The notes under the pieces: model-generated
What the model was told of the DNA's origin: nothing
Databases searched by the model: none
The model's input: only the letters and a program-made list of their open reading frames with translations
NCBI RefSeq assembly: GCF_014251255.1
Contig: NZ_CP059182.1
Coordinates: forward strand, 558,001-622,000
DNA length: 64,000 nucleotides
Direction of reading: 5' to 3'
DNA from: Blattabacterium cuenoti
GTDB taxonomy: Bacteria; Bacteroidota; Bacteroidia; Flavobacteriales; Blattabacteriaceae
Program-made: the position numbers and the translations under genes
Shown here: piece by piece, positions 43,666-46,958 of the stretch
How positions within the stretch are numbered: position 1 is the first letter of the stretch
Layout of the letters: each line of letters opens with the position of its first letter

Positions 43666-44850
43666 ATGTATTTTTCTGTTTCTAACATTTCTCTTTTACA
43701 AAAATTACGCCTTTTACATAGAATTATTAAATCTAATAAAAATTCAGAACATTTTATTTTTGAAATTTTTGGAGAAAAATTAATTATTATGTTCTCCGAT
43801 TCCGATTCAGAAAATATAATTAAGACAGAAATACAAGTATATGTAAAAAAATATTCAAAAGAAAAAGTCTCTGTCCATTCCCAATTGATAATAGATATTT
43901 TATCTACATTTTTAGATGAAATTATTCTCATCAAATTCATAAAGGAAAAAAAAATACTAAATATTTGTTCAAAACAAGGAAACTACGATATTCCTATTCT
44001 TCTTTGGGATAAGAATCATATTCTTAATGATTTTTTTAAAAATTTAAAAGAAATTGAAAAAGAAACTAAAAAAATAACTATATTTTCTAATGTTTTTTTT
44101 AATATTTTAAAAAAAACTTCTTTTATTATTGAAAATAAAGAAGAATTACCAAGTGTTATAAATGGAGTTTTTTTTCAATTTTCTTCAGAGAGATCTACTT
44201 TTGTAGCTACAGATACTTACAAATTAGTAAAATATACAATAAATCATATTCAATTAGACCAATTGATTGAATTTATTCTTCCAAAAAAATCCATTGAAAT
44301 CCTTAAAAAATTTTTATTAGTAAATAAACCCAATAAAAAAAGTAAAGTAACTATTGAATATAGGAATAAAATTGACATAAAATTTCATTTTATGAATGAA
44401 ACTTTTTCATGCTTATTAAGCAACAAAAAATATCCAAATTATAATTCGGTTATTCCTATTCATAAATATGATGTCTTATTTATTATAAATCGTGTTTTAT
44501 TCCTAAATTCTATAAAAAGAATATCTCTTTTATCGAATTTAAATAAAAAAAAAACAAGTTTTATTCGTTTTTATTTTGATAAAAAATTAAAAATTTATGA
44601 AGAATACGATGAAAATATTTATAGCTTTTTAACAATTCAATATGAATTTATTGATAATAGTTTACAAAAAAAAGAAATAAAAATAGGATTTAATTCAAAA
44701 TTTCTAATTGAAATATTATCTTCTTTTAATGAAGATTTTGTTAGTTTTGAATTGTATACTTCAAATAAAGTAGGTATTTTGAGACCAATTAATAATCAAA
44801 ATAAAAGAAAAGAATCAATTTTAATATTGATTATGTCTGTAATAATATGA
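43666..44850 (+). CDS. dnaN: DNA polymerase III sliding clamp (beta subunit)
   Basis: Ring clamp that tethers the replicative polymerase. The 394-residue protein is divergent but keeps the three-domain pattern: MYFSVSNISLLQKLRLLHRI at the start, SVINGVFFQFSSERSTFVAT DTYKLV near residue 165 and SCLLSNKKYPNYNSVIP near residue 245. FNSKFLIEILSSFNEDFVSFEL lies near residue 345, and the C-terminus ILILIMSVII replaces the usual MPVR-like end. It follows tRNA-Met and overlaps pheT by 4 nt (ATGA). Confidence 0.88.
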   Translation: MYFSVSNISLLQKLRLLHRIIKSNKNSEHFIFEIFGEKLIIMFSDSDSENIIKTEIQVYVKKYSKEKVSVHSQLIIDILSTFLDEIILIKFIKEKKILNICSKQGNYDIPILLWDKNHILNDFFKNLKEIEKETKKITIFSNVFFNILKKTSFIIENKEELPSVINGVFFQFSSERSTFVATDTYKLVKYTINHIQLDQLIEFILPKKSIEILKKFLLVNKPNKKSKVTIEYRNKIDIKFHFMNETFSCLLSNKKYPNYNSVIPIHKYDVLFIINRVLFLNSIKRISLLSNLNKKKTSFIRFYFDKKLKIYEEYDENIYSFLTIQYEFIDNSLQKKEIKIGFNSKFLIEILSSFNEDFVSFELYTSNKVGILRPINNQNKRKESILILIMSVII

Positions 44851-46958
44851 GAATCTCATATAATTGGATAAAAAAATATATTTCTATTGATCTTAGTATA
44901 GAAAAAATATCTAGTATTCTTACTGATATTGGGTTTCCAGTAAAAAGGATAAAAAAGATCTTCATAGAAAAAGAAAATCATATAGAAGATGAAGATAATA
45001 TCTTAGATATAGAAATAACTCCTAATCGTGCTGATGCTATGAGTCATTATGGGATAGCTAGAGATTTATACGCTGTTTTAACATTTCGTGGATACAAAAA
45101 GGTACATTTATTAAAACCAATAATAAATAATAGTTATCAAAAAGATATATCCAATAACAAATATTGTTTTCAAATTTTTATTGAAGAAAAGAAAAAATGT
45201 ATTAGATATTCTGGAATTGTGATTTCTAAAATCAAAATAAATCCATCTCCAAATTGGTTAAGTTTTAGATTAAAATCAATTGGGATCAACCCTATTAATA
45301 ATATAATTGATGTTACGAATTTTGTAATGCATGAATTAGGACAACCTATCCATATTTTTGATATGGATCAAATAGAGGGGAAAAAAATTATAATAAGAAA
45401 TGCAAAAAATCACACAATTTTCGAATCTGTTGATAATAGAAAGAGAAAATTAAACGAAAAAGATTTAATTATCCATGATACGAAAAAACCTTTATCAATA
45501 GCTGGGATTATAAATAGTAAAAATTCAAATATTAATTCCAAAACTAAAAATATTTTTTTGGGAAGCGCTTATTTTGATCCTATGACTATCCGTTCTATTG
45601 GAAAAAGACATTTTATAAAAACAGATGCAAAATTTAGATTTGAAAGAGGAGTAGATCCTCATCAAATTGTATATGCGTTACAAAGAACTGCTATTCTTAT
45701 AAAAAAAATTACAAAAGGAAAGATTGGTTCCGATATAATTGATATTTGTTCTCAACCTATATTTCCTTTTAAAATTCAACTTCGTTATAAAAAAATTAGA
45801 GAAACTATAGGAAAATCTATTTCAAAAGAGAAAATTAAAAAAATTTTATTCTTACTTGAAGTCATTATTGTTTCTGAAAATGAAAAATTTTTATTAGTTC
45901 TTGTTCCACCTTATAGAATTGATGTACAAAGAGAAATTGATTTAATAGAAGAAATATTACGTATTTATGGAATAAATAATATAAAAATATCTAACAATAA
46001 TAATATAAGAATATCTCCATTTCCTAACTTTTTTCATAAAACAAAAGAAGAAATACAGAAAATCATTTCTAAACAATTGGTTTGTCATGGATTTCAAGAA
46101 GTTATAAATTATTCTATGAACAAAAAAAATGAATATTCTTGTTTATTAAATTCTTTTTTTAATAGAAAAGAAATTAATATCATTAATCCTACAAATAAAT
46201 TTTATAATTCAATGCGTTCTAGTTTATTATTTGGAATGATAAATTGTATAAAGTATAATCATAACAGAGGAAATATAAAAATAAGATTTTTTGAAATTGG
46301 AAAAATATATTTTCAAGAAAATAATAAATTTTTAGAAAAAACCTTCTTAAGTCTTTCTATGTCAGAAACAGAAAAGAAAAGAATGATAGATCCAATAAAT
46401 TCTTCTTCTTTCTTTTATTTAAAAGGAATTATTGAACAAATTTTTCAAATTTGTGGAATTAACAACTATTCACAAATATTATTTTCACATCCTCTTTTAG
46501 AAAAAAGTATATCAATTCAATATAAAAATAAAAATCTTGTTTTTTTAGGAAAAATAAAAGAAGAATTTTTTCTTCAAAAAAAAGAAATATTCTATGCAGA
46601 AATTGATTGGGAATATTTAATATCTTTTATTCAAGAAAAAAAAGTTCTATATGTTCCATACTCTAAATATCCTACTTCAAAACGAGATTTATCATTTTTA
46701 ATAGATAAAACTATTTCTTTTGAAAAAGTTTATCAATTAATGAAAAAGAAAGAAAAAGGTTTTATTAAAAAAATTGAAATATACGATTTATATGAAGGAA
46801 GAAACTTACCAAAATCAAAAAAATCTTATACCATAAGTTTTTTCTTTGAAAGCAAAAAAAAGACATTAACTGATATCATTATCAATAAAATAATGAAAAA
46901 AATAGAAGAATTTCTGAAAAAAGAACTAGGAGCAAAAATAAGAGAATTATCTCAATAA
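44847..46958 (+). CDS. pheT: Phenylalanyl-tRNA synthetase beta subunit, EMAP-like domain missing
   Basis: Large subunit of the (alpha beta)2 enzyme charging tRNA-Phe. The 703 residues are shorter than the usual 790-810. The first 40 residues (MRISYNWIKKYISIDLSIEK) run almost directly into LDIEITPNRADAMSHYGIAR. The roughly 90-110-residue tRNA-binding (EMAP/OB) domain that normally lies between them is absent. Editing-domain residues, the B5 domain and the C-terminal ferredoxin-like anticodon domain (YPTSKRDLSFLIDKTISF near residue 610) are present. The alpha subunit gene is not in the window. Confidence 0.93.
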   Translation: MRISYNWIKKYISIDLSIEKISSILTDIGFPVKRIKKIFIEKENHIEDEDNILDIEITPNRADAMSHYGIARDLYAVLTFRGYKKVHLLKPIINNSYQKDISNNKYCFQIFIEEKKKCIRYSGIVISKIKINPSPNWLSFRLKSIGINPINNIIDVTNFVMHELGQPIHIFDMDQIEGKKIIIRNAKNHTIFESVDNRKRKLNEKDLIIHDTKKPLSIAGIINSKNSNINSKTKNIFLGSAYFDPMTIRSIGKRHFIKTDAKFRFERGVDPHQIVYALQRTAILIKKITKGKIGSDIIDICSQPIFPFKIQLRYKKIRETIGKSISKEKIKKILFLLEVIIVSENEKFLLVLVPPYRIDVQREIDLIEEILRIYGINNIKISNNNNIRISPFPNFFHKTKEEIQKIISKQLVCHGFQEVINYSMNKKNEYSCLLNSFFNRKEINIINPTNKFYNSMRSSLLFGMINCIKYNHNRGNIKIRFFEIGKIYFQENNKFLEKTFLSLSMSETEKKRMIDPINSSSFFYLKGIIEQIFQICGINNYSQILFSHPLLEKSISIQYKNKNLVFLGKIKEEFFLQKKEIFYAEIDWEYLISFIQEKKVLYVPYSKYPTSKRDLSFLIDKTISFEKVYQLMKKKEKGFIKKIEIYDLYEGRNLPKSKKSYTISFFFESKKKTLTDIIINKIMKKIEEFLKKELGAKIRELSQ

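What the first reader, a model, noticed from the sequence alone, without database searches (positions are those of the whole stretch)
44847..45010. PheT without its tRNA-binding EMAP-like domain
The first 40 residues connect almost directly to the LDIEITPNRAD block, so the whole OB-fold insertion is missing while the rest is conserved. This is a clean domain deletion in an essential enzyme, suggesting that the domain is dispensable when only one tRNA-Phe must be charged slowly.
Basis: partly seen in the sequence, partly recalled or inferred. Interest (0 to 1): 0.55.

Follow-up and report, generated by a model that had tools for sequence, protein, structure and literature searches.

The report
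Cockroach symbiont's slimmed-down phenylalanine-tRNA synthetase
The enzyme that loads phenylalanine onto its tRNA in this cockroach symbiont has cleanly lost one RNA-binding domain and key residues of its proofreading pocket, one of several signs that these bacteria have given up part of the error-checking in protein synthesis.

Summary
Confirmed: the 703-residue PheT has no B2 (EMAP II-like, PF01588) domain. Between residues 38 and 53 stand 14 residues, against 119-128 in 17 comparison PheTs; no PF01588 is found in the 632-kb genome. The genome is a Blattabacterium, and 49 of 49 genus genomes share the deletion. In the wider symbiont family 57 of 68 lack B2, 9 hold 67-75 unplaced residues there, 2 keep it; G067 lost it independently.

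The proofreading pocket is altered: Glu334 and Gly318 (E. coli numbers) are absent in 49 of 49 Blattabacterium, present in 17 of 17 comparison PheTs. Domain B3/4, slowest in the comparison set, is fastest here (2.45-fold relative shift, 1.84-3.02). ThrRS lost its editing domain (11 of 11 sampled) and LeuRS Asp345 (8 of 8).

Best reading: a functional, proofreading-impaired minimal PheRS in a lineage with relaxed translation quality control. Editing loss in host-restricted bacteria is known, and a dispensable PheRS RNA-binding domain was published; a natural, genus-wide, recurrent B2 deletion did not appear in my searches. No activity was measured.

The parts
44847..46958 (+). pheT, phenylalanine-tRNA ligase beta subunit, 703 aa, no B2 domain
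   Evidence: ORF; NCBIfam TIGR00472 572.3 bits, cut-off 402.65; Pfam domains
44847..44960 (+). B1 domain, first half (residues 1-38)
   Evidence: PF18262 weak, residues 3-75; alignment
44961..45002 (+). 14-residue linker at the deletion (residues 39-52), standing where 119-128 residues including B2 stand in other bacteria; predicted hairpin of strands 32-42 and 45-55
   Evidence: AlphaFold2 model, mean pLDDT 58 for residues 41-50
45003..45146 (+). B1 domain, second half (residues 53 to about 100; the end is my own estimate), starts with LDIEITPNRAD
45195..45713 (+). B3/4 (editing) domain, residues 117-289
   Evidence: PF03483 204 bits
45513..45515 (+). Asn223, at the place of E. coli Gly318 (G318W abolishes editing, PMC4066437)
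   Evidence: passages
45561..45563 (+). Gly239, at the place of Glu334, which recognises the tyrosine OH
   Evidence: passages of PMC3275996 and PMC12447630
45774..45971 (+). B5 domain, residues 310-375
   Evidence: PF03484
46044..46568 (+). catalytic-like module (B6/B7), residues 400-574
   Evidence: PF17759
46662..46943 (+). anticodon-binding B8 domain, residues 606-699
   Evidence: PF03147

Best explanation
This is a working beta subunit of a heterotetrameric PheRS from which the B2 EMAP II-like domain was removed as a unit; the two halves of B1 are re-joined by a short turn. Charging continues through the alpha-subunit catalytic core and its N-terminal domain and through B8, which are all retained. 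The enzyme has probably lost most or all proofreading of Tyr-tRNA-Phe: a domain reported to help editing is gone and the editing pocket has lost Glu334 and Gly318. It persists because Blattabacterium tolerates relaxed translation quality control; ThrRS and LeuRS show losses in their editing parts too, while the editing motifs of IleRS, ValRS and AlaRS are kept. Shown here: the deletion, its spread and recurrence, the lost residues, the relative acceleration of B3/4, the ThrRS truncation and the LeuRS substitution. Inferred: loss of editing activity, continued charging, and the link between B2 loss and editing loss.
For: Deletion in 49 of 49 genus members, open frames; PheS retained with core and N-terminal domain (PF01409, PF02912), B5 and B8 retained. 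E334 kept in 17 of 17 comparison PheTs and 0 of 49 Blattabacterium; G318 17 of 17 against 0 of 49. Six editing residues all intact in 16 of 17 comparison PheTs, in G053 (B2 kept), and in 0 of 66 genomes with B2 gone or replaced by 67-75 residues. Branch length of B3/4 relative to the rest: 0.58 in the comparison set, 1.48 in 14 of the 49 Blattabacterium; ratio of ratios 2.45, 1.84-3.02 in 100 bootstraps. ThrS lacks the first 210-227 residues in 11 of 11 Blattabacterium sampled; the editing residues HHCH are kept in 13 of 13 other genomes with a full-length gene. LeuS Asp345 is Ser in 8 of 8. Title of Roy & Ibba 2006 (reference list). E. coli pheT G318W grows like wild type in several stresses and in high p-Tyr, and is impaired by m-Tyr or oxidants (passages).
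Against: No activity was measured. G067 lost B2 but keeps His265, Gly318 and Glu334 (only Thr253 became Pro among the residues tested), and G066 keeps a B2 (43.8 bits, cut-off 27) while its pocket has changed, so the two losses are not strictly tied. No PF01588 is left in MetG either, which has nothing to do with PheRS editing and fits plain erosion. In Blattabacterium positions 334 (Gly 47 of 49) and 318 (Asn 43 of 49) are conserved in their new state, and His265 (43 of 49) and Gly315 (46 of 49) are mostly kept, which is not what a fully dead pocket should look like. Glu334 is kept in 7 of the 19 non-Blattabacterium family genomes whose Gly318 or other residues changed or whose B2 is gone or weak, G067 included. 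Archaeal and eukaryotic beta subunits, which I recall lack B2, do edit.
Confidence: 0.7

Rival explanations
1. Plain reductive erosion: accessory tRNA-binding domains are deleted because drift and deletion bias remove anything non-essential; B2 loss has no special link to editing, and both decay in parallel under weak selection.
For: No PF01588 in any protein of 66 of 68 family genomes; the own MetG is 576 aa (MetG of the others was not examined); B2 was completely deleted at least twice; G067 has no B2 but keeps most editing residues.
Against: Acceleration is confined to B3/4: summed branch lengths of Blattabacterium over the comparison set are 1.35 for B3/4 and 0.47-0.60 for B1, B5, CLM and B8, so decay is aimed at proofreading. 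Motifs that I recall for Ile, Val and Ala editing are kept.
Confidence: 0.45
2. One reading: B2 became dispensable because only one tRNA-Phe has to be charged slowly.
For: One tRNA-Phe(GAA) gene in the genome; reduced, host-dependent lifestyle.
Against: All anticodons but CAT are single copy, so it predicts nothing special for PheRS; it does not explain the editing-pocket substitutions or the ThrRS truncation. tRNA-Phe was not counted in relatives.
Confidence: 0.1
3. The missing domain is supplied in trans by a host protein.
For: None found; a review discusses how smaller symbiont genomes cope without synthetase genes (PMC11020763, passages).
Against: No PF01588 in the genome; a short turn closes B1 in the model; Blattabacterium encodes PheS and PheT itself. 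Host proteins were not searched.
Confidence: 0.03

Closest known systems
PheRS with its dispensable RNA-binding domain removed (Roy & Ibba 2006, Biochemistry 45:9156; title only, in reference lists; that it is E. coli B2 is recalled)
   Same: PheRS without the RNA-binding domain; the title calls the domain dispensable and a contributor to editing.
   Different: Here it is natural, fixed in a genus, and the editing pocket is altered as well.
Mycoplasma synthetases with lost editing (LeuRS, PheRS, ThrRS; PMC7373986, PMC10057733, PMC4014445, passages read)
   Same: The same three enzymes (Leu, Phe, Thr) show lost or decayed editing parts in reduced genomes.
   Different: M. pneumoniae PheT still has B1-B2-B1 (PMC12494982, passage). 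PMC7373986 says that genomes lacking two of these activities exist in Mycoplasma but none is known with three or more; here all three look lost in one genome.
Host-restricted bacteria with degenerate editing sites (Melnikov et al. 2018 PNAS; not held, known through passages)
   Same: Editing-site decay in host-restricted organisms, in many synthetases.
   Different: Whether that paper covers Blattabacterium PheT or B2 could not be checked.
Archaeal/eukaryotic cytosolic PheRS beta subunit (TIGR00471, 551 positions; 3l4g_B, 589 aa)
   Same: Shorter beta subunit; from memory, also without B2.
   Different: Separate lineage; this protein scores 91.7 bits on TIGR00471 (cut-off 282.65) and 572.3 on bacterial TIGR00472; it keeps B8, which I recall the eukaryotic form lacks.

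Membership tests
bacterial PheRS beta subunit (PheT, TIGR00472) | scores above the curated NCBIfam cut-off | tested here: met
   572.3 bits against 402.65
bacterial PheRS beta subunit (PheT, TIGR00472) | B3/4, B5, catalytic-like module and B8 domains | tested here: met
   PF03483, PF03484, PF17759, PF03147 above cut-off
bacterial PheRS beta subunit (PheT, TIGR00472) | B2 EMAP II-like domain inserted in B1 (usual, not decisive for the family model) | tested here: not met
   no PF01588; 14 aa where 119-128 stand. I therefore file it as a variant of PheT; the curated cut-off is passed without B2
bacterial PheRS beta subunit (PheT, TIGR00472) | alpha subunit partner present in the genome | tested here: met
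   PheS core at G000:C1:281013-281729; PF01409 and PF02912
editing-deficient PheRS | loss of conserved editing-pocket residues | tested here: met
   E334 and G318 replaced here; absent in 49 of 49. His265, Gly315, Thr253, Asn254 and Thr354 are kept in this PheT
editing-deficient PheRS | no hydrolysis of Tyr-tRNA-Phe | not testable with these tools
   needs biochemistry
editing-deficient PheRS | relaxed constraint on the editing domain | tested here: met
   B3/4 to rest 1.48 against 0.58; ratio 2.45, 1.84-3.02

The most novel reading that the evidence does not exclude
Bacteria keep B2 in PheRS mainly for proofreading (holding or recapturing mischarged tRNA), so B2 and the editing pocket are lost together, repeatedly, once proofreading is no longer selected. 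This symbiont family would be a natural deletion series: B2 and pocket intact (G053), B2 weaker with pocket changed (G066), B2 gone with pocket nearly intact (G067), both gone (Blattabacterium and others).
Probability: 0.25. Interest if true: 0.65.

Novelty: new variant of a known kind. Interest (0 to 1): 0.5.

Why it matters
It gives a natural, stable counterpart to a laboratory domain deletion, with at least two independent losses, so the purpose of B2 can be tested by comparing enzymes from relatives that differ in B2 and pocket state. It also suggests that one Blattabacterium genome has lost Thr, Leu and Phe proofreading together; a review (PMC7373986, passage) says no example of three or more is known in Mycoplasma and takes this as an upper limit to tolerated mistranslation, whereas another (PMC10057733, passage) says most host-restricted bacteria lost editing in many synthetases.

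Tried and rejected
Separate gene for the domain: none. Free-living relatives also lacking it: none among the 17 comparison PheTs that include the N-terminus; the 15 order genomes without PF01588 have no PheT match (12) or fragments only (3). The 67-75 residues that nine 200-kb relatives (g6, Karelsulcia-like by size; not named by any search) carry in the place of B2: profile comparison with B2 gave no support for homology (probability 0.2% or less), so I call them unplaced, not a proven relic; my notebook entry called them eroded B2 and is superseded. Tighter specificity of the synthetic site as compensation: PheS keeps Ala at position 294 like E. coli, so no sign there; other residues were not examined. 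Exact number of B2 losses: at least two complete ones (G067 separate from the other B2-less genomes, the separating branches starred in both trees); more if the g6 stretch is a relic, but long branches make the placement of g6 uncertain. B2 loss in other phyla was not searched. The AlphaFold model has fair local confidence (mean pLDDT 79) but weak domain arrangement (pTM 0.56; rmsd about 16 A over whole chains), so only the local B1 closure is used. Literature: the listings showed no paper on a natural B2 loss in bacterial PheT or on synthetase editing in Blattabacterium. Some listings were capped (15 of 18, 25 of 12,421 and 10 of 53 papers), the library misses most subscription papers, and Patino-Navarrete 2013 on Blattabacterium was not held. 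One Karelsulcia paper (PMC12016543, passages) reports presence or absence of pheT, not its domains.

For ThrS, 28 genomes were searched: G055 and G061 gave only weak matches and G057 a partial one, all dropped; the G056 row printed was a neighbouring ORF and is disregarded; its real ThrS frame is 405 aa and matches the profile only from position 161. The single Cys that one search prints for G034 lies before the first covered position and is taken as alignment noise. For LeuS, 12 regions were examined: 8 gave a full-length gene, G030 and G006 only partial ORFs, G023 and G015 no hit in the stretch taken. The PheT tree and rate test used 14 of 49 Blattabacterium; the RpoB tree 28 of the 30 genomes searched, 4 of them Blattabacterium (G060 and G081, whose matches were split, left out). 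The point estimates use LG+F+G4, the bootstraps LG+G4 (medians 1.35 and 0.55).

Full report
What was checked. The window lies at 558001-622000 of a single-contig genome of 632,233 bases. It is a Blattabacterium: a genome with the same genus code, G027, matches the window's PheT at 85% and has the contig length (639,415) of B. cuenoti EUPOLsin, NZ_CP059203.1. PheT runs from 44847 to 46958 on the + strand, 703 aa, starting in a 4-base overlap with the end of an ORF that has DNA polymerase beta-clamp domains. The stretch between residues 38 and 53 holds 14 residues, where 17 of 17 comparison PheTs (15 from the same order, one Flavobacteriales MAG, one E. coli) hold 119-128. Pfam finds every other PheT domain, B1 only weakly, but no PF01588, and the genome has no PF01588 match at E<=10, although the same search rings in 14 of 14 control genomes.

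How widespread it is. 49 of 49 genomes of the genus have a PheT in an open frame and 4-14 residues at the junction. Of the 19 other genomes of the family, eight (G049, G050, G051, G052, G054, G055, G065, G067) have 4-11, nine of 200 kb (group g6) have 67-75, and two, G053 (1.3 Mb) and G066, have 128 and 124. PF01588 is found in 2 of 68 family genomes, these two. Outside the family 229 of 244 sampled order members have PF01588 somewhere; of the remaining 15, 12 have no PheT match and 3 fragments. In trees of PheT (junction columns left out, 49 rows) and RpoB (28 rows), G053, G066 and G067 form a supported clade apart from all the other family members, so the B2-less G067 lost the domain independently: at least two complete deletions. 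The branching inside that trio differs between the two trees. The g6 stretch could not be shown to be related to B2.

Anatomy after the deletion. The predicted structure (18-row alignment, mean pLDDT 79, pTM 0.56) closes B1 with a hairpin, strands 32-42 and 45-55, at moderate confidence (mean 58 for residues 41-50). The whole chain matches solved bacterial beta subunits from end to end (Z 45.9, 653 residues aligned to 6oz5_D), with large rmsd (16 A) because the domain arrangement is not reliable. The partner PheS is present with its catalytic core and N-terminal domain, and B8, which contacts the anticodon loop (PMC3275996, passages), is kept. Charging therefore most likely continues; this is inference.

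The editing site. Published structures place Glu334 and Gly315 at the tyrosine OH, and His261, Asn250 and Thr249 (T. thermophilus) near the ester bond (PMC3275996; PMC12447630; passages). In E. coli, G318W ablates editing of both Tyr isomers; that strain grew like wild type in several stresses and in high p-Tyr but was impaired by m-Tyr and by oxidants (PMC4066437, passages). Mapping through E. coli PheT, Glu334 is Glu in 17 of 17 comparison sequences and in 0 of 49 Blattabacterium (Gly 47, Leu 2); Gly318 is Gly in 17 of 17 and in 0 of 49 (Asn 43, Ser 2, Pro 2, gap 2). Over the family Gly318 is kept only in G053 and G067, and Glu334 in 8 of 68. None of the 66 genomes with B2 gone or replaced has all six tested residues (Thr253, Asn254, His265, Gly315, Gly318, Glu334), nor has G066; G053 has them, as have 16 of 17 comparison PheTs. 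G067 fails only at Thr253. In the window's own PheT only 318 and 334 of the eight listed positions are changed. These genomes are related, so the counts are not independent.

Rates. On a fixed tree the editing domain B3/4 has 0.58 times the branch length of the rest in the comparison set and 1.48 times in 14 Blattabacterium, 1.44 in g6, 1.00 in G053/G066/G067, and 0.83, 0.93 and 1.22 in the pairs g5, g2 and g3. With 100 column bootstraps the Blattabacterium-to-comparison ratio of ratios is 2.45 (1.84-3.02). Summed branch lengths of Blattabacterium over the comparison set are 0.47-0.60 for B1, B5, CLM and B8 and 1.35 for B3/4. This is the pattern of relaxed constraint on proofreading. Against a simple dead pocket, positions 334 and 318 are well conserved in their new state, and His265 and Gly315 are mostly kept, so some structural or altered role may remain.

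Context in the genome. ThrS is 415-444 aa in 11 of 11 Blattabacterium sampled and starts near E. coli residue 211-228, so the N-terminal and editing domains are gone; 13 of 13 full-length genes from other genomes keep His73, His77, Cys182 and His186 (that these serve editing is recalled except Cys182, which the abstract of PMC4041444 names). One g6 genome, G056, also has a short ThrS (405 aa). A 403-residue stretch of the 426-residue own ThrS shows only the core and anticodon-binding domains, and the editing-domain family PF07973 is found once in the genome, in an 899-residue frame that carries the AlaS motifs. In LeuS the residue at E. coli Asp345 is Ser in 8 of 8, and the TTRPDT motif is altered in 8 of 8; that these positions serve editing is recalled. 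IleS, ValS and AlaS keep the motifs I recall for editing. MetG is 576 aa without PF01588. Thus three proofreading functions (Thr, Leu, Phe) look lost and three kept. A review states that Mycoplasma genomes with three or more such losses are not known (PMC7373986, passage); another says that most host-restricted bacteria lost editing in many synthetases (PMC10057733, passage).

Verdict. The proposed cause is not supported as the driver; the deletion belongs with decay of proofreading and erosion of accessory domains. Whether B2 loss and editing loss are causally linked is open: G067 and G066 show that either can come first.

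Noticed in passing
G000:C1:188488-189696 (-), outside the window; L221: Threonyl-tRNA synthetase has lost its N-terminal and editing domains in 11 of 11 Blattabacterium sampled.
   Followed up: yes
G000:C1:521821-524019 (+), outside the window; L231: Leucyl-tRNA synthetase has Ser at the place of E. coli Asp345 in 8 of 8 Blattabacterium with a full-length gene in the stretch taken.
   Followed up: partly
G000:C1:326708-327463 (-), outside the window; L196: Methionyl-tRNA synthetase is 576 aa and has no PF01588 tRNA-binding domain, the family of PheT B2.
   Followed up: partly
L058-L066 (group g6), PheT between the B1 halves: Nine 200-kb relatives carry 67-75 residues in the place of B2 with no detectable likeness to it: eroded domain or new insert.
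   Followed up: partly
44847-44850: The clamp ORF (43666-44850) and pheT overlap by four bases (ATGA), which suggests coupled translation; pheS lies far away at about 281 kb.
   Followed up: no
L158 (G081:C1:1594355-1598031): rpoB of this 2.8-Mb genome (96% complete) is split over several frames: possibly sequencing errors.
   Followed up: no
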